From positions 1 through 39,256 of the forward strand of contig CAMBIK010000008.1 of NCBI GenBank assembly GCA_945867435.1: a DNA stretch of 39,256 nucleotides. The letters are read 5' to 3'. Position 1 is the stretch's first letter. Each line of letters opens with the position of its first letter. Shown one piece after another: positions 8,828 through 34,845 of this stretch. Made by a program: the position numbers and the translations under genes. This DNA comes from Klebsiella pneumoniae. Lineage in GTDB: Bacteria; Myxococcota_A; UBA796; SXON01. A model generated the notes under the pieces. That model searched no databases. It was not told the origin of the DNA and saw only the letters and a program-made list of their open reading frames with translations.

Positions 8828-8833
8828 TAGGGG
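8828..8833 (+). promoter_or_regulatory. -10-like TAGGGG before the ATP-grasp gene
   Basis: TAGGGG ends 6 bases before the ATG at 8840, within the 87-base gap after the CotH-like gene. No Shine-Dalgarno sequence fits better. Confidence 0.4.
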
Positions 8834-8839
8834 GCCGCG

Positions 8840-9775
8840 ATGGTCCATATCCTCTACGAAAACCCCGCCTGGTTGCCCCCCCTGCTCGCCGCGCTCGACG
8901 CACAGGGATTGTCCTGGCAAGCAAGAGATGCGAGCAAAGGCGAGTTTCACGTCGAGGGTGAAATCCCCCCCGGCGTGTGGCTCAACCGGATGAGCCCTTC
9001 CGCCCACACCCGCGGCCACGCCGGGGGCATCCACTTTGTGCGCGAGTGGCTAGGCGTGCTGGAAGAGCGGGGGGCGCCCGTGGTGAACGGCAGCAGGTCG
9101 TTCGCTCTCGAAGTCAGCAAGGTCCGTCAGCATGCGGCCCTGCATGCGATGGGGATCCTCACCCCGCGGACGATTGCGGTGGTCGGCCGCGACGGACTGC
9201 GTGCTGCGGCCCGGCAGATGGGCGCGCCGTTCATCACCAAGCACAACCAGGGTGGCAAGGGGCTTGGGGTCCAGTTGTTCCGGGACCACGCCGCGTTCGA
9301 CACCTTCGTGGCGGGCGATTCGTGGGAAGAACCGATGGACGGCGTGATGCTGCTCCAGGAATACATCGAACCGCCCTCCGGAAGCATCACGCGCGTGGAG
9401 ATCGCGGGGGGGCGCTTCCTGTTCGCGATGCGGTCGGCCACCACCGGGGGATTTGAGCTTTGTCCCTCGGATGCTTGCCAGGTCGGCGATGCCTTCTGCC
9501 CCGTGGGCGAATCGCCTTCAGCGAAGTTCGCGGTCGATCCGATGACCGCCGACGATCCCACCGTGCGCGCCTACATCGCTTTCTGCGAAAAGCACGAGAT
9601 CGACGTGGCAGGCATCGAGTTCGTGACCGGAGCGGACGGCCGCCGCTACACGTACGACATCAACATGAACACCAACTACAACAGCGCGGTCGAGCGGTCC
9701 GCGGGTGTGGATGGGATGCAGGCTATCGCGGAGCTTTGCGGTCGCAAACTTGGTGCGGCGAGGGCGGCGGCGTAG
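8840..9775 (+). CDS. RimK-like ATP-grasp ligase
   Basis: The 311 residues follow the RimK/ATP-grasp plan. The pre-ATP-grasp part contains WLNRMSPSAHTRGH and VNGSRSFALEVSKVRQHAAL. The ATP-binding part has PFITKHNQGGKGLGVQLF (phosphate loop) and MLLQEYIEPPSGSITRVEI. The metal-binding end is GIEFVTGADGRRYTYDINMN with TNYNS. Enzymes of this group form a peptide or amide bond between a carboxylate and an amine with ATP, as in adding glutamate to proteins or small molecules. The substrate is not evident from the neighbours. It ends 5 bases before the convergent radical SAM gene. Confidence 0.85.
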   Translation: MVHILYENPAWLPPLLAALDAQGLSWQARDASKGEFHVEGEIPPGVWLNRMSPSAHTRGHAGGIHFVREWLGVLEERGAPVVNGSRSFALEVSKVRQHAALHAMGILTPRTIAVVGRDGLRAAARQMGAPFITKHNQGGKGLGVQLFRDHAAFDTFVAGDSWEEPMDGVMLLQEYIEPPSGSITRVEIAGGRFLFAMRSATTGGFELCPSDACQVGDAFCPVGESPSAKFAVDPMTADDPTVRAYIAFCEKHEIDVAGIEFVTGADGRRYTYDINMNTNYNSAVERSAGVDGMQAIAELCGRKLGAARAAA

Positions 9776-9780
9776 GGCCC

Positions 9781-10617
9781 CTAAACCACCTTCACCGAAA
9801 GCCCGACCGCTGCCGCATGCGCCCCAATCCAGGCGAGCCGGTCAGGGGGGAGGGCGCCGACCTGTGACGACGCCGGCGGCCGGGCCACGGTGTATACCTG
9901 CACCTCGGCCACGGTGCCCGATTGAGCGACTTCGCGAAGTCGTTCCACCCAGGCCGCGATCTCGGCATCCGCCGGGCCTTCTCCGTCCATGGTGAGGAAC
10001 ATGGACTGGATCACGATCGGACGCAACGCCGCCAGCTCGCGCAGGTTGCGCAGGACCCGGGCAAACGGGAACTTCGTGCCATCGACGAGCTGAAAGTACG
10101 GCTCCGTGCCTGCGTCCAGCTTGCACCAGATCTCGTCGATGTGGGGGAGGCCTGCTCGCACAGATGCGCGATGGAGCAGGGTGGAGTTGGTGAGCAGCCT
10201 CACCGGCACGCCGGGCGCCAGTCGATCGCGAAGCGAGGCAACCAGGGCGGCTGAACCCGGGAATTCGGGTGGGGTGGTGGGTTCCCCATCGCCGGCGAAG
10301 GCGATGTCGACGACGTGGCGATGCTCGGCTGCGGTGGTGTCGAAGGGGGAGTCGGCCCAGAGATCGCCGCTGCGCACCCGGAGGAGAAGCTGTTCCAGCT
10401 CCTCGTGGAGTCGGTTTTGGTCGATGCGCGCCGACCCTCCCGGCACGCGCCGGTCCACCTGGCAATAGGGGCAGTCGAAGTTGCACACCTTGTCGGGGTT
10501 CAAGTTCACGCCGATGCTCAGGCCGCCGGCTCGCCGCGAAACGACGGCGTAGACGTAGCGGTTTTCCCCGAGATCGCGTCGGTGATCGGTGAAGTCGAGG
10601 CGGCGGGGCGAAGGCAC
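9781..10617 (-). CDS. Radical SAM protein
   Basis: The 278 residues contain the cluster motif CNFDCPYC (Cys45, Cys49, Cys52) that binds the 4Fe-4S cluster used to cleave S-adenosylmethionine. FAGDGEPTTPPEFP matches the glycine-rich/GEPT SAM-binding motif, and VRLLTNSTLLHR and IWCKLDAGTEPYF continue the partial TIM barrel. A C-terminal auxiliary cluster is not obvious, as no further Cys cluster follows. The protein resembles the broad COG0731 Fe-S oxidoreductase group, whose reactions are varied, so no reaction is assigned. The start is GTG 10617, 38 bases from the divergent GMC operon. Confidence 0.85.
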   Translation of the reverse strand: MPSPRRLDFTDHRRDLGENRYVYAVVSRRAGGLSIGVNLNPDKVCNFDCPYCQVDRRVPGGSARIDQNRLHEELEQLLLRVRSGDLWADSPFDTTAAEHRHVVDIAFAGDGEPTTPPEFPGSAALVASLRDRLAPGVPVRLLTNSTLLHRASVRAGLPHIDEIWCKLDAGTEPYFQLVDGTKFPFARVLRNLRELAALRPIVIQSMFLTMDGEGPADAEIAAWVERLREVAQSGTVAEVQVYTVARPPASSQVGALPPDRLAWIGAHAAAVGLSVKVV

Positions 10618-10623
10618 GGGCTC

Positions 10624-10629
10624 GTTCTA
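10624..10629 (-). promoter_or_regulatory. -10-like TAGAAC before the radical SAM gene
   Basis: On the minus strand TAGAAC is followed by 6 bases (GAGCCC) and the GTG start. The divergent intergenic gap is only 38 bases, leaving no room for a long leader. Confidence 0.5.
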
Positions 10630-10655
10630 TCGCTCCGCGGGATACCCGGTCGGTC

Positions 10656-11174
10656 GTGAGCCTCACGCGCCGCCGCCTACTGATCGCCGCTGGCGCCGTT
10701 TCCGTCGCTGCTGTCGCGGTAGCGGGGGGGGGCGCCGTCGTGGCCAATGAGTGGTGGGATCAGCCGGCCGAGGCGCCCCTGGCCCACCTCAGCGCGGGCG
10801 AAATCGCCTTCCTGAACGCGCTGGCCGACTCCATCTTCCCGCCTTCCCCTGCCTTTCCGGTTCGGGGGCGCGATGCATCGGTCGGCGTGCATGTGGATGA
10901 GGTACTCACCGGCATGGAGCCCTTCCAACGCAAGCTTGTTCGCTTCTCGTTCCACCTGCTTGATCAATGGCCTCGCATGTCCCTCAATGCCCCCTTTCGT
11001 GATCTGGGACCGGAGGAAGGCGGCGTCGTGCTCCTGGAATGGCTGAACCACGAGCGGGCCGAAATCCGGGGCCTCATCGCGAGCGTCTATATCTTCGTAG
11101 CGATGAGCTACTCCATGCACCCTGAGGTCTCTCCGATCTTCGGGGCTCAGTTCCGCTGTGGATATGGCGCGTAG
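10656..11174 (+). CDS. Gluconate 2-dehydrogenase subunit 3-like protein (small subunit of GMC oxidoreductase)
   Basis: The 172 residues begin SLTRRRLLIAAGAVSVAAVA, a twin-arginine-type signal with Arg-Arg-Arg and a hydrophobic stretch. The mature part has LSAGEIAFLNALADSIFPPS, the hallmark block of the gluconate 2-dehydrogenase subunit 3 family. That family partners a flavin GMC oxidoreductase and helps carry it across the membrane. The next gene starts on the base after this stop codon and is such a GMC enzyme, which strongly supports a complex. A weak -10-like TACCCG lies 7 bases before the GTG. Confidence 0.85.
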   Translation: MSLTRRRLLIAAGAVSVAAVAVAGGGAVVANEWWDQPAEAPLAHLSAGEIAFLNALADSIFPPSPAFPVRGRDASVGVHVDEVLTGMEPFQRKLVRFSFHLLDQWPRMSLNAPFRDLGPEEGGVVLLEWLNHERAEIRGLIASVYIFVAMSYSMHPEVSPIFGAQFRCGYGA

Positions 11175-12734: not shown

Positions 12735-15413
12735 GTGGTGAACGATGAACAAGCGGGGCTGAACCGGGGGGGCGACCTTGCAGGCGCACCGACGGTTTTG
12801 GGTGGCCGGTGGACTCCGATTCAGTTCGTGGCGGCGGTGGGTCTGGTTTTTCTGTTCGCGTTCACGCTCATCCTCTCCTTGGCGCCCGTGGCCGGTGGAG
12901 AGAGGGTGGTTGGGCTGGACGGTCCTTGGCAGTTGGTGGAGGTCGATGGCGCCCCCACCACCGGGATCTTCACCCTGCCCGGGCTGTTGGCCGACCAGGG
13001 AATGTCCCCCTCGGCCCGGGTCAGCCTACGCAGGGTCATCGAGATCCCCGCGGCCCGCGGGTGGAGCGCGGTGTGGGTCGAAAGCCCTCTTTACGCCACG
13101 CGACTCTCCCTCGATGGGGAGGAGATCGGGGCATCCGGCGACCCCGATGGGGTGGGCGCCGCCTCGCGCAGCGAGACGGGAGTGCTGGCGCGCCTGCCGC
13201 ACAGCCCCGGCCCGCACACCCTGCAGTTGGACTTGAAGGGAGGCTACGGCAAGGGCGGCATGACCGGGCGCATCCTCATGGGGCCGGAAGAGACGTTGAG
13301 AGGGGTGGCCAAGGAGCACAACTCGGCGCCGCTTGGTCTTTCGGTGATTGTGGCATTGCTCGGTATCTTGTGGTTCCGGGTCGCATTGGGGTCCCCCGCC
13401 CGCCTGGCGTGTTTCTGGTTCGGGTGTTTCGCCTGCGTGCTCTCGGCCTGGAGCTTCCTGCAGACCGAAAGCGCCAACGAATTGCTGCCTTCAGTGTCCA
13501 TGGCGATCCGGCTGCGTCGGCTGCTCAACCCCTTCCTGGGGCCGCTCGGCATCACCATGTTCTCCAGCCTGGTCTACGGTGCGCCGCCTCGCTGGACCCG
13601 CGCCTACATCGGCCTTGGCGTTTGCCTCGCGGTCCCCGCCTTGTTCGTCCCTGACGACTCGCTCTTCCTTCTCGAACGGGTGCAGGATGGCTCCCTCGTT
13701 TTGTTGGTCGTCGCCGCTTTCTGGATCATGGGCGATGGCATCCGCAAGCAGATTCCGGGGGTGCTGGCGTTTGCTCTGGTCACTTTCCCGCCGCTGCTCG
13801 TCGGGGCCTCCGTTCATGTGGCCATGACCCACGGAACGCACGGCGGGAACTCGTTCATGTACACGGCGTTGACCCTGTTCATCGTGGCGGTTTCGGCCTT
13901 CATGGGTCGGCGCTTCATCGTCGAGGCGGATTGGCATGCGCGATTGCTCGCGCTCAGCAGCGATGCGATCGTGTACGTCGAGCAGGGCGGGCGGGTGTTT
14001 GGCATGAACCCGGCGGCCCACACCATCCTCGGGGAAATCCCCGAGCAGTCGATGTTTGTATGGGCGGATCGATGCCGGGTCCCCCTGATGCACGCGCACA
14101 TCGAGCGCGGCGCGGCCGCGGTCGACCGCGCTGAGTTCTGCTTGGGAACGGGCCAGGAGCAGCGTTTTGTCGAGTCCGTCGCCACGCCGCTGGGCACCGG
14201 CTCAGCGCTGCTGGTCCTGCGCGATGTGACCCGACGCCGCCAACTCGACGAAGGCATGCAGCACGCTTCGAAGATGGAGACCATCGGCCGACTGGTGGGC
14301 GGGCTCGCTCACGACTTCAACAACATGCTCAGCGTGCTCCTGGCTCATGTGTCGTTGCTGCAGCTCCGCTTGACGGACGCGCCGGAAGCCGACCGCCTCA
14401 TCCGGATGGAGGCGGCCATCGTGAGGGCCAGCCAGCTCTCCCGCCGCCTCCTCACGGTGGCTGGAAAGGTGAGCCTCACCCTCGAGCCTGTGCAACTCGA
14501 AAAGATCAGCCGTTCCGCCTGCGAACTGGTCGAACCGACGCTTCGGAAGACGGTGACGCTTCACCGCGACGGGCCTGAAACGCTCCCCCCGATTCTCGGC
14601 TCCGAAGCCGACTTGGAACAGGTGCTCGTGAACCTGCTGGTGAACGCCCACGATGCCGTGGGGCCGAGCGGCCAAATCTGGGTGCGGACGCGTTCCTACG
14701 CGTTGCCCAACGGCGCTACGGGCGCGATGGTCATCGTGGAGGACGACGGTCCTGGGGTGCCCCTCGCGCAACGTGAGTCGATCTTCGAACCTTTCGTGAC
14801 GACCAAAGGGGCGAACAAGGGTACGGGTCTCGGCCTGGCCATGGCCGCGAAAGTCCTGCGCGACCACAATGGTCGTCTCTGGTTCGAAGAACGTCCGGGC
14901 GGCGGGGCCCGCTTCTGCGTGGCCCTTCGGTCCGCGCCGCGCCACCTGGCGGGTGAGCCCGCTCTCCCGGTGTGTCGGGATGTGCTTCTCGTGGAAGACG
15001 AGGAAGCTACCCGGGAGGCCTGCGCTGCAGAGCTGATCGCCAGCGGTTTTGTGGTCACCGCGGTTTCCACGGCGGAGGCGGCGCTGGAGGTCCTCGCGAC
15101 CGCGTGTCCGGCGGTGCTCGTGACCGACGTGGTGATGCCGGGCATGTCCGGGATCGACCTCGCGGTGTTGGCGACCGTTAAGTACCCTTCGCTCGCCGTT
15201 CTTTTGGTGAGCGGGTTCATTCCCGAGCGCTTGGTTCCCCAACTTGAGCGCGGGTCGTGGTGGCGCCTCGACAAGCCGGTTCGTCCGGAACGCATCGTCG
15301 CCACGGTCAGGGCGATCTGTCTTCGCCAGGAGTCCGCCAGCGACGCCTCCGCCTCGGAAAGCCCCTTGCTCGCGCCGCTGAACGCGCTCCGCGCCGAGTA
15401 TGTCCTGGGTTAG
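12735..15413 (+). CDS. Membrane hybrid histidine kinase with receiver domain
   Basis: The 892 residues run in this order: a membrane helix (about 31-50), an outer beta-rich domain (60-195) that starts like sugar-binding/GH2-type sandwiches, about seven membrane helices (200-392), a PAS-like domain (403-498), the phosphoacceptor helix GGLAHDFNNML (His526), an HATPase with VNLLVNAHDA (N box, Asn637), VEDDGPGVP and GTGLGLAMA, and a receiver (748-865) with acidic VEDEE, phosphoacceptor Asp798 in LVTDVVMPGMSG and Lys847. The layout recalls 7TMR-DISM sensors. It lies 27 bases after the GMC gene, so it may be co-transcribed. GTG 12738 is an alternative start with GGAG closer to the usual distance. 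The output partner is not in the window. Confidence 0.92.
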   Translation: MVNDEQAGLNRGGDLAGAPTVLGGRWTPIQFVAAVGLVFLFAFTLILSLAPVAGGERVVGLDGPWQLVEVDGAPTTGIFTLPGLLADQGMSPSARVSLRRVIEIPAARGWSAVWVESPLYATRLSLDGEEIGASGDPDGVGAASRSETGVLARLPHSPGPHTLQLDLKGGYGKGGMTGRILMGPEETLRGVAKEHNSAPLGLSVIVALLGILWFRVALGSPARLACFWFGCFACVLSAWSFLQTESANELLPSVSMAIRLRRLLNPFLGPLGITMFSSLVYGAPPRWTRAYIGLGVCLAVPALFVPDDSLFLLERVQDGSLVLLVVAAFWIMGDGIRKQIPGVLAFALVTFPPLLVGASVHVAMTHGTHGGNSFMYTALTLFIVAVSAFMGRRFIVEADWHARLLALSSDAIVYVEQGGRVFGMNPAAHTILGEIPEQSMFVWADRCRVPLMHAHIERGAAAVDRAEFCLGTGQEQRFVESVATPLGTGSALLVLRDVTRRRQLDEGMQHASKMETIGRLVGGLAHDFNNMLSVLLAHVSLLQLRLTDAPEADRLIRMEAAIVRASQLSRRLLTVAGKVSLTLEPVQLEKISRSACELVEPTLRKTVTLHRDGPETLPPILGSEADLEQVLVNLLVNAHDAVGPSGQIWVRTRSYALPNGATGAMVIVEDDGPGVPLAQRESIFEPFVTTKGANKGTGLGLAMAAKVLRDHNGRLWFEERPGGGARFCVALRSAPRHLAGEPALPVCRDVLLVEDEEATREACAAELIASGFVVTAVSTAEAALEVLATACPAVLVTDVVMPGMSGIDLAVLATVKYPSLAVLLVSGFIPERLVPQLERGSWWRLDKPVRPERIVATVRAICLRQESASDASASESPLLAPLNALRAEYVLG

Positions 15414-17047
15414 CGCGAGTGGACCAACCAGACGTTCGCCACGATGCCGGCGCCGAACCCGCTCCCTGAGTCGTAGGCCTCGGGCACATAGGTGTCTCCC
15501 TCGTAGAGTCCTCGGTAGGCCAGGGTGTTCTCGGCGCCGGCTGCCACCGCGGCCGTGATGTCGGCACTCCACGGGTCCACCTGCTTGCCCGGACACCAGC
15601 CTCCCCGCCCGAGGACCCAGGTGCCGTACTGGTTCGGTACGGTGCCCACGTTGACCTGGTCGCCGCACCCGTAGTTGCTGCCCGCCATCGCGAAGTCGTG
15701 GACCCAGGTCTCGGTACCGTTCACGGTGAATTCGTGTTCGTGGTTGCAAAACTCGGCGCAGTTCGCGCGGTCTTTTCCGTATCCGTGGCCGGTCACCAGT
15801 GCCCAGACTTCGGTCCGCACTGTGCCTTCCGGCGGCGTGAACGTGATCGGCTCGCGCCCGGTGTTGTAGTCGGAGTTGAACGAGCCTCCGGCCCAGAGGT
15901 AGTCGATCTGTACGGGGCGAAACCCCTTTCCCTGGTTGGAGAGCCGCAAATCCAGGGTGATCAGCGGAGCGTTTGCGCTGTCCACGCGAAGGGTGCGCGG
16001 GCCGCCGTCTTGCAACATCGCGAGGAACGGGGTGACATCCACCACCCAGCGGCCGGGCCGGGCGTAGGCGGTGATGAAGCGGCCGATCTCGGTGCAGATT
16101 CCCGATTCGTCCACGTCGGTGGTCGAGGCGTCGTCGGCATCGCAGAGGTACACGTAGGCGAGGTAGTCCCATTCGCCGCAGCCGACGCTGTCGGGGTGGC
16201 CGTTGCAGATAAAGGTCAGGTCCAACTCCATCGTGTCGTAGGTCGCCATCGTTTCCGCCGCGCCGAAGTCCACGCTTACGGCCCGTTCGCCCGTGTTCAC
16301 GAACGGGTGGAGAACGTCGGCGCCATCGACATCCAGCCGGTCCTGCATGGCGGCTTGCCCGTTGAAATAGAGAGCCTCGTAGTTCAGGAAGGCAGGGGGC
16401 GAGGTGTTCCAGCCGGTGACCGGGTCGGCGAGGTAGCCGAGCTCGCGGATGCGCTGAAAGCGGTCGACGGCGAAGTTCAGCGGGAGGTCGCCGCTGCCAT
16501 AGGTTTCCACGAGCGTGTCAATCCAGGTGCCGGTCTGGTCCCAATCCGTGGCCACATAGTGGGCGTGGGCCTTCCACATCGCGAGCGTTGCCTCGTCGGC
16601 ATCGGCGATGTTCTCGATGTCCTCCTGCAGCGCGGCCAGCGCGTCGGTTCGCTTCGACTCGGTGCGTTCGTCGGAGAAGAACACCCAGTGGGTGTTCGCG
16701 GGTGCCCCTTCCATCCATTCGCGGACCAGGATCTTGGAATCGAAGTCGGGGTAGGCATTGCCCGGGCGCAGGCGCACGAAGATCACGCTTTCGCAGCCGG
16801 TCCATGCTTCGGAGAGTGTCCAGGCGGAGCCATCCGTCTGGGTAAGGGTGGCGTCGGGGGCCACCAGGTCGAAGTCCACGTCGACACCGGAACCATCCCA
16901 GGTGCGGACGGGGAGCGCGAGCTGGTCGCAGATCGTGGGGGGGGCCTCGATCACGGCGGTGTCGGCCGTGTCTGTGGCGGAGTCGACCGCGGTGTCGTTG
17001 GCTTCGGGGGTGGATTCCGGGCAGGCGAGCAGCAGCAAGGTGAGCAT
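15410..17047 (-). CDS. PNGase F-like lipoprotein with an extra N-terminal domain
   Basis: The 545 residues start MLTLLLLACPES (lipidated Cys9), then an Asp/Thr/Ala-rich linker to residue 33. Residues 50-200 have DGSAWTLSEAWTGCESVIFV, possibly redoxin-like (inference). From about 245 onward the protein matches peptide-N-glycosidase F: VGCGEWDYLAYVYLC (Asp294, equivalent to catalytic Asp60), EIGRFITAYARPGRW, GHGYGKDRANCAEFC (Glu432, equivalent to Glu206) and GTWVLGRGGWCPG. The region equivalent to Glu118 reads LRVDSANAP, with Ala358 at that position. The family removes N-glycans from asparagine. Start 17047 is chosen because it gives the lipoprotein signal and follows TACTCT by 6 bases. The stop interlocks with that of the kinase. 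Confidence 0.85.
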   Translation of the reverse strand: MLTLLLLACPESTPEANDTAVDSATDTADTAVIEAPPTICDQLALPVRTWDGSGVDVDFDLVAPDATLTQTDGSAWTLSEAWTGCESVIFVRLRPGNAYPDFDSKILVREWMEGAPANTHWVFFSDERTESKRTDALAALQEDIENIADADEATLAMWKAHAHYVATDWDQTGTWIDTLVETYGSGDLPLNFAVDRFQRIRELGYLADPVTGWNTSPPAFLNYEALYFNGQAAMQDRLDVDGADVLHPFVNTGERAVSVDFGAAETMATYDTMELDLTFICNGHPDSVGCGEWDYLAYVYLCDADDASTTDVDESGICTEIGRFITAYARPGRWVVDVTPFLAMLQDGGPRTLRVDSANAPLITLDLRLSNQGKGFRPVQIDYLWAGGSFNSDYNTGREPITFTPPEGTVRTEVWALVTGHGYGKDRANCAEFCNHEHEFTVNGTETWVHDFAMAGSNYGCGDQVNVGTVPNQYGTWVLGRGGWCPGKQVDPWSADITAAVAAGAENTLAYRGLYEGDTYVPEAYDSGSGFGAGIVANVWLVHSR

Positions 17048-17438: not shown

Positions 17439-17753
17439 TCAGCGCAGATAGGCCGCCAAGGCGTCGATGTCGCCCGCCAGCTGCGGCATGGGCTGCATCA
17501 CCTTGGAGGGGCGCTTCGGGGTGTAGCCGGCGGGGTAGGTGGCCGTTAGCACCCGCGCTTCTAGCAGCTCGCGAGAGGCACCCTTCACCTCGGGGCCGAG
17601 GCTGCCGGCTTTCGCCGGGTCGGCGTTGTGACATGCGATACAGTTGGAAAGGTACACCGAGCGGCCCCGTTTGGCCTCCGCGGACAGCGCGGGGGCGTCA
17701 GAAGGCCCGGTGGAGCAGGCGAAGTACGCGGTGACCAAGGCGAGGCTCAGCAT
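17439..17753 (-). CDS. Small cytochrome c, lipoprotein
   Basis: The 104 residues begin MLSLALVTAYFAC, a lipoprotein-type signal (Cys13). The haem c attachment motif CIACH sits in RGRSVYLSNCIACHNADP, and MQPMPQL near the C terminus provides the likely axial Met. The size and the ending DIDALAAYL fit class I cytochromes c. It is probably anchored to a membrane facing the periplasm and shuttles electrons. Its divergent neighbour is a PuuD-like membrane protein, whose relatives often carry a fused cytochrome c domain. TAGTCC lies 6 bases before the ATG. Confidence 0.88.
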   Translation of the reverse strand: MLSLALVTAYFACSTGPSDAPALSAEAKRGRSVYLSNCIACHNADPAKAGSLGPEVKGASRELLEARVLTATYPAGYTPKRPSKVMQPMPQLAGDIDALAAYLR

Positions 17754-18016: not shown

Positions 18017-18712
18017 ATGTCCATCTTTACGAACGACGGCGCGCTCTTCCTCCTGCGGCTCACCCACCTGTTGGCCGGCGTCACCTGGGTCGGCCTGCTT
18101 TACTACTTCAACTTCGTGCAAGTTCCCTATTTCGGAGAGACCAAGACGGGCCTTGGAACCGGGGAGTTCCGCAAGCTCGTGGTCCGGGCGCTGTGGTGGT
18201 TCCGCTGGGCGGCCATGTTCACGTTCCTCTCGGGGCTCGCCATCTACATGATGAACCTGCACACGGGCATGGATGCGATGGGCACCTGGGGCGTGAAGAT
18301 CAGCGTCGGCATGACCTTCGGCATCCTGATGTTCCTGAACGTGTGGCTGGTCATCTGGCCCAACCAGAAGGTCGTCATCGCCAGCGCCGACTCGGTCGCT
18401 GCGGGCGGCCCGGCCGATCCCAACGCCGCCGCCGCAGGGGCCCGCGCCTTCCTGGCTTCTCGCACCAACACGCTCTTCTCCATCCCGATGCTCTTCTTCA
18501 TGGCCGCGGCGCGTCACTTTGACGCGATGGATGCGGATCACGCCATGAAGGGACTCGGTATCGTCACCGTGCTGGCTCTCGCGCTGGAAGCCAACGCGCT
18601 GTTCGGGAAGAAGGCTGTCGGGCCGTCGAAGATGCTGGAAACCGTGCCGGGCGTGATTCACTCCGGGCTCGTGCTCGCGGTGCTTAGCTATCTGGCGATT
18701 GAACTGACTTAG
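18017..18712 (+). CDS. PuuD-like (urate-hydroxylase N-terminal family) membrane protein
   Basis: The 231 residues match the membrane part of PuuD-type proteins: LRLTHLLAGVTWVGLLYYFNFVQVP at the start, then ALWWFRWAAMFTFLSGLAIY and LMFLNVWLVIWPNQKVV, with a late GVIHSGLVLAVLSYL. About six or seven helices are visible. His17 and His near the C terminus could bind haem. PuuD couples urate oxidation to a fused cytochrome c, but here no CxxCH is present, so urate hydroxylation is not assured. Many short relatives in proteobacteria have no known role. TAGGGT lies only 3 bases before the ATG. Its stop codon interlocks with that of the hydrolase gene. Confidence 0.75.
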   Translation: MSIFTNDGALFLLRLTHLLAGVTWVGLLYYFNFVQVPYFGETKTGLGTGEFRKLVVRALWWFRWAAMFTFLSGLAIYMMNLHTGMDAMGTWGVKISVGMTFGILMFLNVWLVIWPNQKVVIASADSVAAGGPADPNAAAAGARAFLASRTNTLFSIPMLFFMAAARHFDAMDADHAMKGLGIVTVLALALEANALFGKKAVGPSKMLETVPGVIHSGLVLAVLSYLAIELT

Positions 18713-28120: not shown

Positions 28121-28543
28121 ATGCTTTACGCCCTCGTGTTCGGTCTCTGCCTCCCCTTCGTCGTCCGCATGAACGAGTCCCTCTCCCGCGTCATCGGCTA
28201 CCTGCCAGGGGCTTGGGCGGTACACGCCGTCGGGGCGGTTTTCGGGGCGGCGCTCCTGCTTCCTTTCTCGGGCACGGCGTGGCCTCGGGCGGTGCCCACG
28301 GTGTCGTGGTGGGCGTGGATGGGGGGGGTCGTCGGCTGCGGGATGGTGGTGCTGGCCACGCGTGCGGTGTCCGCGATGGGCATCGCCTCGTTCACGGCGG
28401 TCACGGTGGCTATCCAACTCGTGGTGAGCGCGGCGATCGACCAGTACGGTTGGGTGGGGGCCGACGTTCATCCGCTCACGGTCACGCGGGCGTTCGGCAT
28501 CGGGCTCCTGGGGGTGGGGGCTACGCTCGTGGTGCGCGGGTGA
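28121..28543 (+). CDS. DUF606/YdcZ-like small membrane protein (DMT superfamily)
   Basis: The 140 residues contain about five hydrophobic helices. The N-terminal FVVRMNESLSRVIG, AWAVHAVGAVFGAALLLPF and later FTAVTVAIQLVVSAAIDQYGW resemble DUF606 half-transporters of the drug/metabolite transporter superfamily, which are about this length and dimerise. The substrate is unknown. Its stop overlaps the ATG of the next gene (TGATG), so the two are coupled. Confidence 0.72.
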   Translation: MLYALVFGLCLPFVVRMNESLSRVIGYLPGAWAVHAVGAVFGAALLLPFSGTAWPRAVPTVSWWAWMGGVVGCGMVVLATRAVSAMGIASFTAVTVAIQLVVSAAIDQYGWVGADVHPLTVTRAFGIGLLGVGATLVVRG

Positions 28544-29616
28544 TGCTCGCCATCGTCATCGCCGCGGCCTGCGGGGCTGGGGCCGAGGAATCGATTTCCT
28601 TGCCCGGAGTAAGCTTTATTGCGGTGGGCCGGGCGGAACAGCCGACCGCGATGGCGTCCACGCCTGCGGGCCCCGAGGGACTCTGGGTGGCGGAACAGGC
28701 GGGTCGGGTGGTCACCCTGACCGGGGCGGTGGTGCTGGACATTCGGGACCGGGTGTCCTCTGGCGGAGAAACCGGACTTTTGGGCCTTGCGTTCGCTCCG
28801 GGCTGGCCAAGCGATCCGCGCGTCGTGCTCAACTACACCGCGAAGTCCGGCGGGAAGCTTCGCACGCGCATCGCCAGCTTCCGGTCCGTTGACGGGGGTA
28901 AAACACTCGATGCGACCACAGAAGGGATCCTCCTCCAGTTCGAACAGCCGTACAGCAACCACAACGGCGGCCCGGTGCAGTTCGGACCGGATGGCTTCCT
29001 CTACGTCGGTGTGGGCGATGGTGGCAGCGGCGGCGACCCCCACGGCACGGGCCAGGACCGCTCCGATCTGCTCGGCAGCATCTTGCGAATCGACGTGTCC
29101 ACCACCCCCTACCGCGTGCCTCCCGACAATCCCTTCGTGAACGCTCCGGCGGCCTGCCCCGAGGTCTGGGCGTACGGACTGCGGAACCCCTGGGGCATGC
29201 ACTTTGATGGTGCCACGCTCTGGTGGGCCGACGTGGGTCAGCACGCCTGGGAGGAGGTGGATCGCGGCGTTGTGGGCGGGAACTATGGGTGGAACCGGAT
29301 GGAGGGCACCCATTGTTTTGGCAAGGCCCCTTGCGCCGGCGCATTCCAAGCTCCCGTGGCGGAGTACGGGCACGACGAGGGGCAGTCCGTCACCGGCGGC
29401 TTCGTGTACCGCGGGCCGAGTATCCCCGCGATTGACGCCCACTATGTCTTTGCTGATTTCGCGAGCGGCCTCTTCTTCGCTGTCCCCGCGGCCGGGGGCG
29501 CGCTGAGCCGGCTCGGGTCCGTTGACCTGCACCCGAGCACCTTCGGGCGGGGTCGGGATGGGTCCATGTACGTCGCCGATTACGGGGGTGCGGTCTACCG
29601 ACTTGTCGCCCGATGA
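28543..29616 (+). CDS. PQQ-type sugar dehydrogenase (glucose/sorbosone dehydrogenase family), lipoprotein
   Basis: The 357 residues start MLAIVIAAACGAGAEE, a lipoprotein signal (Cys10). The six-bladed propeller family is recognised from ETGLLGLAFAPGW, NHNGGPVQFGPDGFLYVGVG with DGG calcium-site residues, GSILRIDV, YGLRNPWGMHFD, GGNYGWNRMEG and TGGFVYRGPSIP with HYVFADFASG near the end. Such enzymes oxidise sugars in the periplasm using PQQ and pass electrons on; no PQQ synthesis genes are in the window, and the family also includes members of uncertain activity. The start overlaps the DUF606 stop. Confidence 0.9.
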   Translation: MLAIVIAAACGAGAEESISLPGVSFIAVGRAEQPTAMASTPAGPEGLWVAEQAGRVVTLTGAVVLDIRDRVSSGGETGLLGLAFAPGWPSDPRVVLNYTAKSGGKLRTRIASFRSVDGGKTLDATTEGILLQFEQPYSNHNGGPVQFGPDGFLYVGVGDGGSGGDPHGTGQDRSDLLGSILRIDVSTTPYRVPPDNPFVNAPAACPEVWAYGLRNPWGMHFDGATLWWADVGQHAWEEVDRGVVGGNYGWNRMEGTHCFGKAPCAGAFQAPVAEYGHDEGQSVTGGFVYRGPSIPAIDAHYVFADFASGLFFAVPAAGGALSRLGSVDLHPSTFGRGRDGSMYVADYGGAVYRLVAR

Positions 29617-29901
29617 GCGGGCCACGCCGCGTGCCGCCAGGGCTTCGGGAGGGCCCACCAGGTCCAGCGCGGCGCAGGCCTCCGCGGCCGAGCCCTCCGC
29701 GATTCTAAAGGGGTTGCGCCCAGCATCTCCACCGCGCGACCGCCCCTCGGCGATGTTGAGCACGACCGAATCGGCAGCGCGTTGAAGTTGATCGCGGAGC
29801 GGTGACCGCCCGGGGGCGATCTTCAGCGCGGGACATCCGCGAGCGACATCCAGTGCGAGGCGGTAAACATCGAGATTCTCATGAACGAAGGTGTAGGGCA
29901 T
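29602..29901 (-). pseudogene. Truncated four-helix-bundle (S23/IVP family) protein
   Basis: From ATG 29901 the frame reads MPYTFVHENLDVYRLALDVA, then LRDQLQRAADSVVLNIAEGRSRGG and FRIAEGSAAEACAALDLVG, matching the four-helix-bundle family first known from 23S rRNA intervening sequences. The expected last helix is missing: after residue 90 the sequence becomes unrelated, the frame stays open antisense to the sugar dehydrogenase gene, and no stop codon occurs for more than 300 codons. A frameshift to a nearby TAG is possible. It is probably a remnant, and it lacks a TANNNN motif before its start. The end given here is approximate. Apart from it, 29617-30078 holds only the -10-like site at 30067. 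Confidence 0.6.
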
Positions 29902-33576: not shown

Positions 33577-34845
33577 TTGGGCGGGCGGTGCCAAGTTTGG
33601 AAGGTATCGCGTTACGCCGCGGCAGCGTTTTCCGCGGGTTGTGACTCGAGTCTCGACCTGCTTATCCCGGCCGAGATCGACGAGTGTTCCGAGCTTTGTG
33701 TGGGTGCCACGCTTTCGCCGGCCAGCGTGGCGGAGGTGGCCATCCTCGTCGACGGTCAAGCGTTTGGAACCCCCGTTTCCACCGATGCCGACGGGCGAGC
33801 GGAGGTGTGCGCTGGCGGCCTGACCGTGGGGTCGCATGAGGTGACCGCGACCGTCGGCACCGTCGCCGGCACGGGCAACGTCACCGTGCGCGCGTTCGGC
33901 TTCGCCGATGGCTTCCTTCGGGACGAGGCCGAGCTGACTTCGCTGCCGTGGACGCCCACTTTCAGCCGCTTCCAGGCCGGTCCGGTTTTGCTTCCGGGCG
34001 CAGCGGGCACCTGGGATTCGGTGGCCGTCGCGTTGCCCACGGTCGCGGCCACGGAGACCGGCTGGGTCATGGGGTACGCCGGGTCCGGTGGCGGGGACTA
34101 TGTGATCGGGGCGGCCACTTCCCCAGACGGACTGGCTTGGACACGCGCCCCCGACAACCCGCTGCACACCGGCAGCGGCACGGAGGGAGATTGGAAGCGC
34201 TACAGCGTGAACTCGCCGATGTTTGTTTCTACCGGCGATGAATGGGCGATGTTCTACGATGGCCGCGGGGGCGAAACGGGCAACATCAACATCGGTCTGG
34301 CCACGGGCCCCGACGCACTTCATGTCTCCGACGACAGCGGCGAGCCGGTTTTTCGGTGGACGGAGGGCGAGGAGTCCTGGGCGGGACAGGCCGTGGCCCA
34401 CCCCAGCGTGCTTCTGAACGCGGAGGGGTTCTGGGAGTTGTGGTACTCGACCGGTCTCCAGAAGCTGGGGTACGCCTACTCCACGGATGGGCGAACGTGG
34501 TCTCGCTACTGCCACAATCCGGTTTTCGTGCCGGATGCGGCCAACCCCTGGGAAAACGACACGGTCAAGGCTGCGGAGGTGATCGAGACGGCGGATGGCT
34601 ACGCCATGACCTATAGCGCCGGCGGCAAAGGCACGTTCCAGGTCGGGTGGGCGATGAGTCGCGATGGTTTGCATTGGCAGCGTGCGGCCGAGCCCGTGCT
34701 GACGCCGGGAACGGAGGCCTGGGAGGCCCGTGCGGTGCTGTCCGCGCCGCTTGCGGTGGTCGGGGATGAGCTTTGGATGTGGTACACGGGTACCGATGGA
34801 GTCGGATCGTCCATCGGACTGGCGAAGGCGGCCGGATTTCCTTGA
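33577..34845 (+). CDS. Beta-propeller lipoprotein with an Ig-like N-terminal domain
   Basis: The best start is TTG 33577, only 3 bases after the previous stop codon and in the same frame; it gives MGGRCQVWKVSRY before a weak lipoprotein signal (AAAAFSAGC). An Ig-like part (about 30-110) is followed by a five-bladed propeller of GH43/GH130 type with blade repeats: YVIGAATSPDGLAWTRAPDN, WAMFYDGRGG, GYAYSTDGRTWSRY and VGWAMSRDGLHWQRA, each with an Asp-Gly-x-x-Trp core. It may bind or cut glycans; catalytic residues could not be confirmed. The unconvincing signal leaves the N terminus uncertain. Confidence 0.72.
   Translation: MGGRCQVWKVSRYAAAAFSAGCDSSLDLLIPAEIDECSELCVGATLSPASVAEVAILVDGQAFGTPVSTDADGRAEVCAGGLTVGSHEVTATVGTVAGTGNVTVRAFGFADGFLRDEAELTSLPWTPTFSRFQAGPVLLPGAAGTWDSVAVALPTVAATETGWVMGYAGSGGGDYVIGAATSPDGLAWTRAPDNPLHTGSGTEGDWKRYSVNSPMFVSTGDEWAMFYDGRGGETGNINIGLATGPDALHVSDDSGEPVFRWTEGEESWAGQAVAHPSVLLNAEGFWELWYSTGLQKLGYAYSTDGRTWSRYCHNPVFVPDAANPWENDTVKAAEVIETADGYAMTYSAGGKGTFQVGWAMSRDGLHWQRAAEPVLTPGTEAWEARAVLSAPLAVVGDELWMWYTGTDGVGSSIGLAKAAGFP

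What the first reader, a model, noticed from the sequence alone, without database searches (positions are those of the whole stretch)
15410..17047. PNGase F-like lipoprotein with an added N-terminal domain and altered third active-site residue
Asp294 and Glu432 align with PNGase F Asp60 and Glu206, in contexts that match closely (GEWD, EIGRFIT, CAEFC, GWCPG). The place of Glu118 is Ala358. An extra domain of about 150 residues sits between the lipid anchor and the glycosidase-like part. A free-living bacterium with a cell-anchored deglycosidase could attack host or prey glycoproteins, or the altered site could mean another amide substrate.
Basis: partly seen in the sequence, partly recalled or inferred. 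Interest (0 to 1): 0.6.

Follow-up and report, generated by a model that had tools for sequence, protein, structure and literature searches.

The report
Bacterial lipoprotein relative of fish PNGase
This is most likely a cell-surface enzyme that cuts N-linked sugar chains off proteins; it belongs to a large, little-studied myxobacterial family whose closest characterised relative is the acid sugar-removing enzyme of fish eggs, so the gene is an ordinary member of a known enzyme superfamily and its relatives are the interesting part.

Summary
The gene is real: 545 codons, minus strand, 15410-17047. It encodes a lipobox-bearing protein with a redox-dead thioredoxin-like domain (about residues 39-205), a linker helix (219-239) and a PNGase F-type double jelly roll (244-545). 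D294 and E432 match PNGase F D60 and E206, and are invariant in 72 relatives along with W293 and H421. By sequence (E 2.5e-50) and fold (E 5.5e-40) it is zebrafish Ngly2, the acid PNGase solved in 2025; PNGase F is far behind. The 'added domain' is Ngly2's thioredoxin-like domain, without the protease-associated domain that interrupts it in fish. The 'altered third residue' is not special. The Glu118 segment is short and unconserved across this family and in active Ngly2, and active type II PNGases have Gly there. The family occurs in 159 of 379 sampled genomes of the phylum (apparently Myxococcota), often in several copies. The window's genome shows no STT3 oligosaccharyltransferase but has a GH92 mannosidase, and GH92 co-occurs with the family (74% vs 31%). 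Best reading: an envelope-anchored PNGase used to scavenge eukaryotic N-glycoproteins. Activity is untested here. It is a new member of a known kind, of modest interest.

The parts
15410..17047 (-). Coding sequence of the Tx-like/PNGase lipoprotein, 545 aa plus stop
   Evidence: translation; homology; identified as the single family copy in this genome
17021..17047 (-). Very short lipoprotein signal, residues 1-9 (MLTLLLLAC), lipobox Cys9. The true start may lie a few codons upstream, since an in-frame GTG would add a positively charged stretch
   Evidence: Cys9 aligned as Cys in 71/72 relatives; other members of the family have ordinary lipoprotein signals
16934..17020 (-). Thr/Asp-rich flexible tether, residues 10-38
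   Evidence: low pLDDT in the model; variable in the alignment
16433..16933 (-). Thioredoxin-like domain, residues 39-205, no CXXC; probable structural disulfide C40-C85
   Evidence: Profile match to the Tx-like domain of Ngly2, i-E 1.6e-4; Foldseek matches to thioredoxin domains 4grf and 4nmu; CXXC absent in 72/72; both Cys present in 66 members and neither in the other 6
16793..16795 (-). Cys85, covarying partner of Cys40 (16928-16930)
16331..16393 (-). Linker helix, residues 219-239, as between Tx-like and PNGase domains in Ngly2
   Evidence: AF2 model; PMC12753239
15413..16318 (-). PNGase F-type catalytic domain (two jelly rolls), residues 244-545
   Evidence: PF09113; Foldseek to 9lwg and 1pnf
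16163..16171 (-). W293-D294-Y295, the aromatic-Asp-aromatic/positive motif; D294 corresponds to PNGase F D60 and Ngly2 D421
   Evidence: motif described in PMC12381499
15785..15787 (-). His421, corresponds to Ngly2 His546 and PNGase F Trp191; invariant in 72/72
15752..15754 (-). Glu432, corresponds to PNGase F E206 and Ngly2 E555; invariant in 72/72
15974..15982 (-). D356-S357-A358, the segment next to where PNGase F carries Glu118; unconserved in the family

Best explanation
The gene encodes an envelope-anchored peptide:N-glycanase of the PNGase F superfamily, in the Ngly2-type branch (thioredoxin-like domain, linker helix, PNGase domain) but without the protease-associated (PA) insert of the animal enzymes. 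Shown here: the gene, the lipobox, the domain order, the predicted fold, the invariant Trp-Asp/His/Glu active-site set, the loss of redox cysteines from the thioredoxin-like domain, and the wide occurrence of the family in the phylum. Inferred: Asp294 and Glu432 hydrolyse the GlcNAc-Asn amide bond as in PNGase F and Ngly2, leaving Asp in the peptide and releasing the whole N-glycan; the thioredoxin-like domain is a structural or dimerisation module; the enzyme sits on the outer face of the cell and feeds on N-glycoproteins from eukaryotes, with a GH92 alpha-mannosidase lipoprotein trimming the released glycan. Because the PA lid is missing and the Glu118 segment is short, it should accept folded or cyclic substrates and tolerate core alpha-1,3-fucose. 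Because it has Tyr instead of Ngly2's His422, it should not be restricted to acid pH.
For: PF09113 at 1.4e-26. Sequence match to Ngly2 at E 2.5e-50 against PNGase F at about 1e-6; with a family profile, Ngly2 at 7e-93 with a separate significant match in the thioredoxin-like domain, PNGase F at 3e-19. AF2 model pLDDT 91.1, pTM 0.88; best PDB match 9lwg at E 5.5e-40, then PNGase F at E 9e-18. W293, D294, H421, E432, W477, W484 in 72/72. Ngly2 D421A and E555A lose all activity (PMC12753239). The His+Glu and aromatic-Asp-aromatic/positive features are those shared by characterised PNGases (PMC12381499). No STT3 match in own genome; GH92 lipoprotein present; family and GH92 co-occur, odds ratio 6.4, against 3.0 for a control GH16.
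Against: No activity data. No glycan-utilisation operon: neighbours are unrelated and the gene order is not conserved around family members. The co-occurrence with GH92 is not corrected for phylogeny or genome size. No GH20 or GH29 match in this genome, though it is only 76% complete. Surface rather than periplasmic location is not established.
Confidence: 0.83

Rival explanations
1. The active site is altered so that the protein hydrolyses another amide substrate (not N-glycan-Asn), or is a non-catalytic glycan-binding protein.
For: No acid is conserved at the Glu118 place; only two characterised proteins with this architecture or close to it are known to me from the papers read, Ngly2 and the oyster PNGaseCg, and PNGaseCg showed little activity on the substrates tested.
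Against: The Asp/Glu pair plus Trp and His are invariant in 72 diverged members. Ngly2 lacks the third acid as well and is fully active. Type II PNGases with Gly there are active.
Confidence: 0.1
2. It processes the bacterium's own N-glycosylated proteins.
For: Bacterial N-glycosylation exists in some lineages (general knowledge).
Against: No STT3/PglB-family match in the genome, whereas the same search found it in four archaeal controls; the genome is 76% complete, so absence is not proof. The bacterial N-glycan linkage is usually not GlcNAc-GlcNAc (general knowledge). The association with GH92 mannosidases points to eukaryotic-type mannose-bearing glycans.
Confidence: 0.05
3. The thioredoxin-like domain is enzymatically active (peroxiredoxin-like or disulfide reductase) and the protein is bifunctional.
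For: The fold matches thioredoxin-family proteins such as 4grf, 4nmu and ResA.
Against: No CXXC in any of 72 members, and its only conserved Cys in this region (C85) is gained and lost together with C40, as expected of a structural disulfide. Ngly2's domain is also redox-dead and serves dimerisation.
Confidence: 0.03

Closest known systems
Zebrafish Ngly2 acid PNGase (si:dkey-256h2.1, PDB 9lwg, PMC12753239)
   Same: Thioredoxin-like domain lacking CXXC, linker helix, PNGase domain in the same order; catalytic Asp/Glu; Trp before the Asp; His at the PNGase F Trp191 place; no acid at the Glu118 place; 35% identity over the PNGase domain
   Different: Ngly2 has a PA domain (186-318) inserted in the thioredoxin-like domain and His422 after the Asp where this protein has Tyr295; it is lysosomal and active only below about pH 6; this protein has a bacterial lipobox and no PA domain
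PNGase F, Elizabethkingia meningoseptica (1pnf)
   Same: Double jelly-roll fold, D60/E206 equivalents, GWCPG and CAE(W/F)C motifs
   Different: No thioredoxin-like domain; Trp191 and Arg61 instead of His and Tyr; Glu118 on a longer TETWLA segment; about 25% identity
Type II PNGases (PNGase F-II 4r4x; B. massiliensis 7zgn)
   Same: PNGase fold, N-terminal accessory domain joined by a helix, no Glu at the 118 place
   Different: The accessory domain is the bowl-like NBL beta domain, not thioredoxin-like; weaker fold match
Single-domain PNGases found in other genomes of the same phylum (L136-L146; possibly the type of PNGaseLl of Labilithrix luteola, PMC12381499)
   Same: PNGase domain, D/E pair, His before CAEFC
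   Different: No thioredoxin-like domain; keep Asp-Thr-Trp (FIDTW) at the Glu118 place

Membership tests
PNGase F superfamily (PF09112/PF09113) | Significant match to the N-glycanase_C profile | tested here: met
   1.4e-26, 93.4 bits over a cut-off of 25; 72/72 relatives also match
PNGase F superfamily (PF09112/PF09113) | N-glycanase_N (PF09112) match | tested here: inconclusive
   Not matched in this protein up to E 0.1; 9 of 72 relatives match it; the fold covers both halves
PNGase F superfamily (PF09112/PF09113) | Catalytic Asp60 and Glu206 equivalents | tested here: met
   D294 and E432 aligned and invariant in 72 members
PNGase F superfamily (PF09112/PF09113) | Two eight-stranded jelly rolls | tested here: met
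   AF2 model and Foldseek to 1pnf, TM-score 0.72 on the target length
PNGase F superfamily (PF09112/PF09113) | Releases N-glycans from peptide Asn | not testable with these tools
   needs an assay
Ngly2-type PNGase | Thioredoxin-like domain without CXXC, N-terminal to the PNGase domain, joined by a helix | tested here: met
Ngly2-type PNGase | PA domain inserted in the thioredoxin-like domain | tested here: not met
   No room in the 545-aa protein; no Pfam PA match in it or in 72 relatives; the domain match to Ngly2 resumes after the insert
Ngly2-type PNGase | Strictly acidic pH optimum | not testable with these tools
   One of the two candidate histidines is present (H421), the other is Tyr295
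Type II PNGase (PNGase F-II) | N-terminal bowl-like domain | tested here: not met
   N-terminal domain matches thioredoxin folds
PNGase A family | PNGase A-type domain | tested here: not met
   Only PF09113 was matched in all of Pfam-A up to E 0.1

The most novel reading that the evidence does not exclude
The myxobacterial lipoprotein family is the bacterial sister, and possibly the source by horizontal transfer, of the animal Ngly2 acid PNGases: the ancestral enzyme had the thioredoxin-like/helix/PNGase layout, and the animal line later gained the PA lid that restricts it to unfolded glycopeptides.
Probability: 0.3. Interest if true: 0.5.

Novelty: new member of a known kind. Interest (0 to 1): 0.32.

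Why it matters
It links a large and apparently uncharacterised set of myxobacterial surface proteins to an animal enzyme whose gene was identified only in 2025. The PA-less bacterial versions give a natural comparison for two open points about Ngly2: whether the PA domain is what blocks folded substrates, and which histidine makes it acid-only. The second is already narrowed here: the His at the Ngly2 His546 place is invariant in 72 bacterial relatives and is reported as the usual residue in characterised PNGases, so it is unlikely to be the acid determinant by itself. The bacterial enzymes may also be useful for releasing core-fucosylated plant or invertebrate glycans.

Tried and rejected
Searched for a PA domain in bacterial relatives, including 20 with only a C-terminal first match and open frames of 500-1030 aa: none has a recognisable PA domain between the thioredoxin-like and PNGase parts (read by eye; Pfam was run on the other 72); many have a Cys-rich insert inside the PNGase domain instead. 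Looked for a conserved operon around 80 relatives: none; only two loci (L038, L039) keep the cytochrome c and urate-oxidase-like neighbours a few kb away. Considered D356 as the Glu118 counterpart (MAFFT); rejected as uncertain because HMMER and hhalign differ and the residue is not conserved. Considered PNGase A, type II PNGase and a redox role (see membership and rivals). IQ-TREE timed out, so the tree is FastTree only: Ngly2 is sister to all 84 bacterial Tx-like/PNGase sequences, support 0.89. Searching the phylum of L073 as a new centre was not accepted. Residue-level superposition was not possible because model coordinates are not supplied.

Full report
WHAT IS THERE. The window carries an uninterrupted 545-codon gene on the minus strand at 15410-17047. 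Pfam gives one family, PF09113 N-glycanase_C, at 1.4e-26 over residues 392-533. The protein begins MLTLLLLAC, a minimal lipoprotein signal; the Cys is aligned as Cys in 71 of 72 relatives. A Thr/Asp-rich tether follows. The start codon is not certain: an upstream in-frame GTG would give a more usual signal with a positive charge.

CLOSEST RELATIVE. 9lwg is Ngly2, the fish acid PNGase whose gene and cryo-EM structure were published in November 2025 (PMC12753239). That paper already mentions orthologues in some bacteria.

FOLD. An AlphaFold2 model built from 72 family members has pLDDT 91.1 and pTM 0.88. Foldseek against the PDB ranks 9lwg first (E 5.5e-40, TM-score 0.76 on the query), then PNGase F (E about 1e-17, TM-score 0.7 on the target), other PNGases, and, for the N-terminal part, thioredoxin-family proteins. 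The layout is thioredoxin-like domain (39-205), linker helix (219-239), PNGase domain (244-545). In Ngly2 the thioredoxin-like domain is made of residues 58-185 and 319-343, with a PA domain (186-318) inserted. The bacterial protein lacks that insert, and no PA domain was found in 72 relatives.

ACTIVE SITE. W293, D294, H421, E432, W477 and W484 are identical in 72 of 72 members whose identity to this protein goes down to 32%. D294 and E432 align with D60/E206 of PNGase F and D421/E555 of Ngly2; mutation of either to Ala abolishes Ngly2 activity. W293-D294-Y295 fits the aromatic-Asp-aromatic/positive motif, and H421 plus E432 fit the His+Glu pair, that are reported as common to characterised PNGases, PNGase F being the exception with Trp for His (PMC12381499).

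THE 'ALTERED THIRD RESIDUE'. Three alignments disagree on the counterpart of Glu118: A358 by the HMMER profile, D356 by MAFFT, none by hhalign, which shows PNGase F's TETWLA as an insertion. The shared point is that this segment is short and carries no conserved acid in the family (acidic in 1/72 at 358, 25/72 at 356). Ngly2 has Ala there in pairwise alignment (TAPW against TETW) and is active. Type II PNGases have Gly there, which opens a pocket for core alpha-1,3-fucose (PMC9522356). Single-domain PNGases from other genomes of the phylum keep Asp (FIDTW). So this is a subfamily trait that probably affects which core-fucosylated glycans fit, not a sign of a different reaction.

THE N-TERMINAL DOMAIN. 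No member has CXXC in it (0/72). C40 and C85 are both present in 66 and both absent in 6, as expected of a structural disulfide. Ngly2's equivalent domain is also redox-dead and forms the dimer interface; the same role here is inference.

DISTRIBUTION. 159 of 379 sampled genomes of the phylum have a match, many with 2-5 copies. In a FastTree phylogeny of the PNGase domain, Ngly2 is sister to all 84 bacterial Tx-like/PNGase sequences (support 0.89), and this whole group is separate from PNGase F and the single-domain enzymes (support 0.81). Sampling outside the phylum is thin and only one animal sequence was available, so direction of transfer, if any, is open.

BIOLOGICAL ROLE. The gene has no conserved neighbours; flanking genes are a hybrid histidine kinase, an ArsC-family protein and a cytochrome c. 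The genome (76% complete) has no STT3 match, but has a GH92 alpha-mannosidase with a lipoprotein-like start on another contig. Across the 379 genomes GH92 is present in 74% with a strong family match and 31% without (odds ratio 6.4); for a control family, GH16, the figures are 38% and 17% (odds ratio 3.0). The excess is suggestive but not corrected for phylogeny. In Bacteroides a GH92 lies beside a PNGase in an N-glycan utilisation locus.

PREDICTIONS. Without the PA lid the enzyme should cut folded or cyclic glycopeptides, unlike Ngly2. With Tyr295 instead of His422 it should not be restricted to acid pH. The Ngly2 paper calls H422 and H546 unique to Ngly2; His at the H546 place is invariant in this family and usual in other PNGases, so H422 is the better candidate for the acid profile.

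VERDICT. The protein is a new, uncharacterised member of the PNGase F superfamily, in the Ngly2-type branch, in a form without the PA domain.

Noticed in passing
L036, L060, L074 (CALQBK020...) and L042, L057 (CAMAXZ01...): Public records titled 'Bifidobacterium breve HRS-HS13-bin-116' and 'Klebsiella pneumoniae ME-21oct19-254' carry this myxobacterial gene on contigs whose lengths match genomes G097 and G142 of the window's own family; the organism names in the titles look wrong.
   Followed up: partly
L111-L130: A subgroup of the family has a 50-250 aa, mostly Cys-rich insert between the catalytic Asp strand and the (E)xxR(W/F)IT strand of the PNGase domain; L122 has a particularly long one. 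Function unknown.
   Followed up: no
window 33577-34845 (+): Protein with a weak GH130 (beta-1,4-mannooligosaccharide phosphorylase) match, 3.7e-07; possibly another mannose-related enzyme 17 kb from the PNGase gene.
   Followed up: partly
window 17439-17753 (-) and 18017-18712 (+): Divergent pair, a small cytochrome c and a membrane protein with a urate-oxidase N-terminal-like match; kept together at over 80% identity near the PNGase gene in L038 and L039.
   Followed up: partly
window 12735-15413 (+): Hybrid sensor histidine kinase with a C-terminal receiver domain; its last codons overlap the end of the convergent PNGase gene by 4 bases.
   Followed up: no
window 28468-29901 (-): Match to the 23S rRNA-intervening-sequence (four-helix) protein family in the first 81 residues of a 477-aa frame that overlaps a convincing glucose/sorbosone dehydrogenase gene on the other strand.
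   Followed up: no
G000:C118 (L134) 8832-11072 (-): GH92 alpha-mannosidase with a lipoprotein-like start in the same genome, beside a large repeat-rich protein with a Cys-Gly-Cys sorting-like end.
   Followed up: partly
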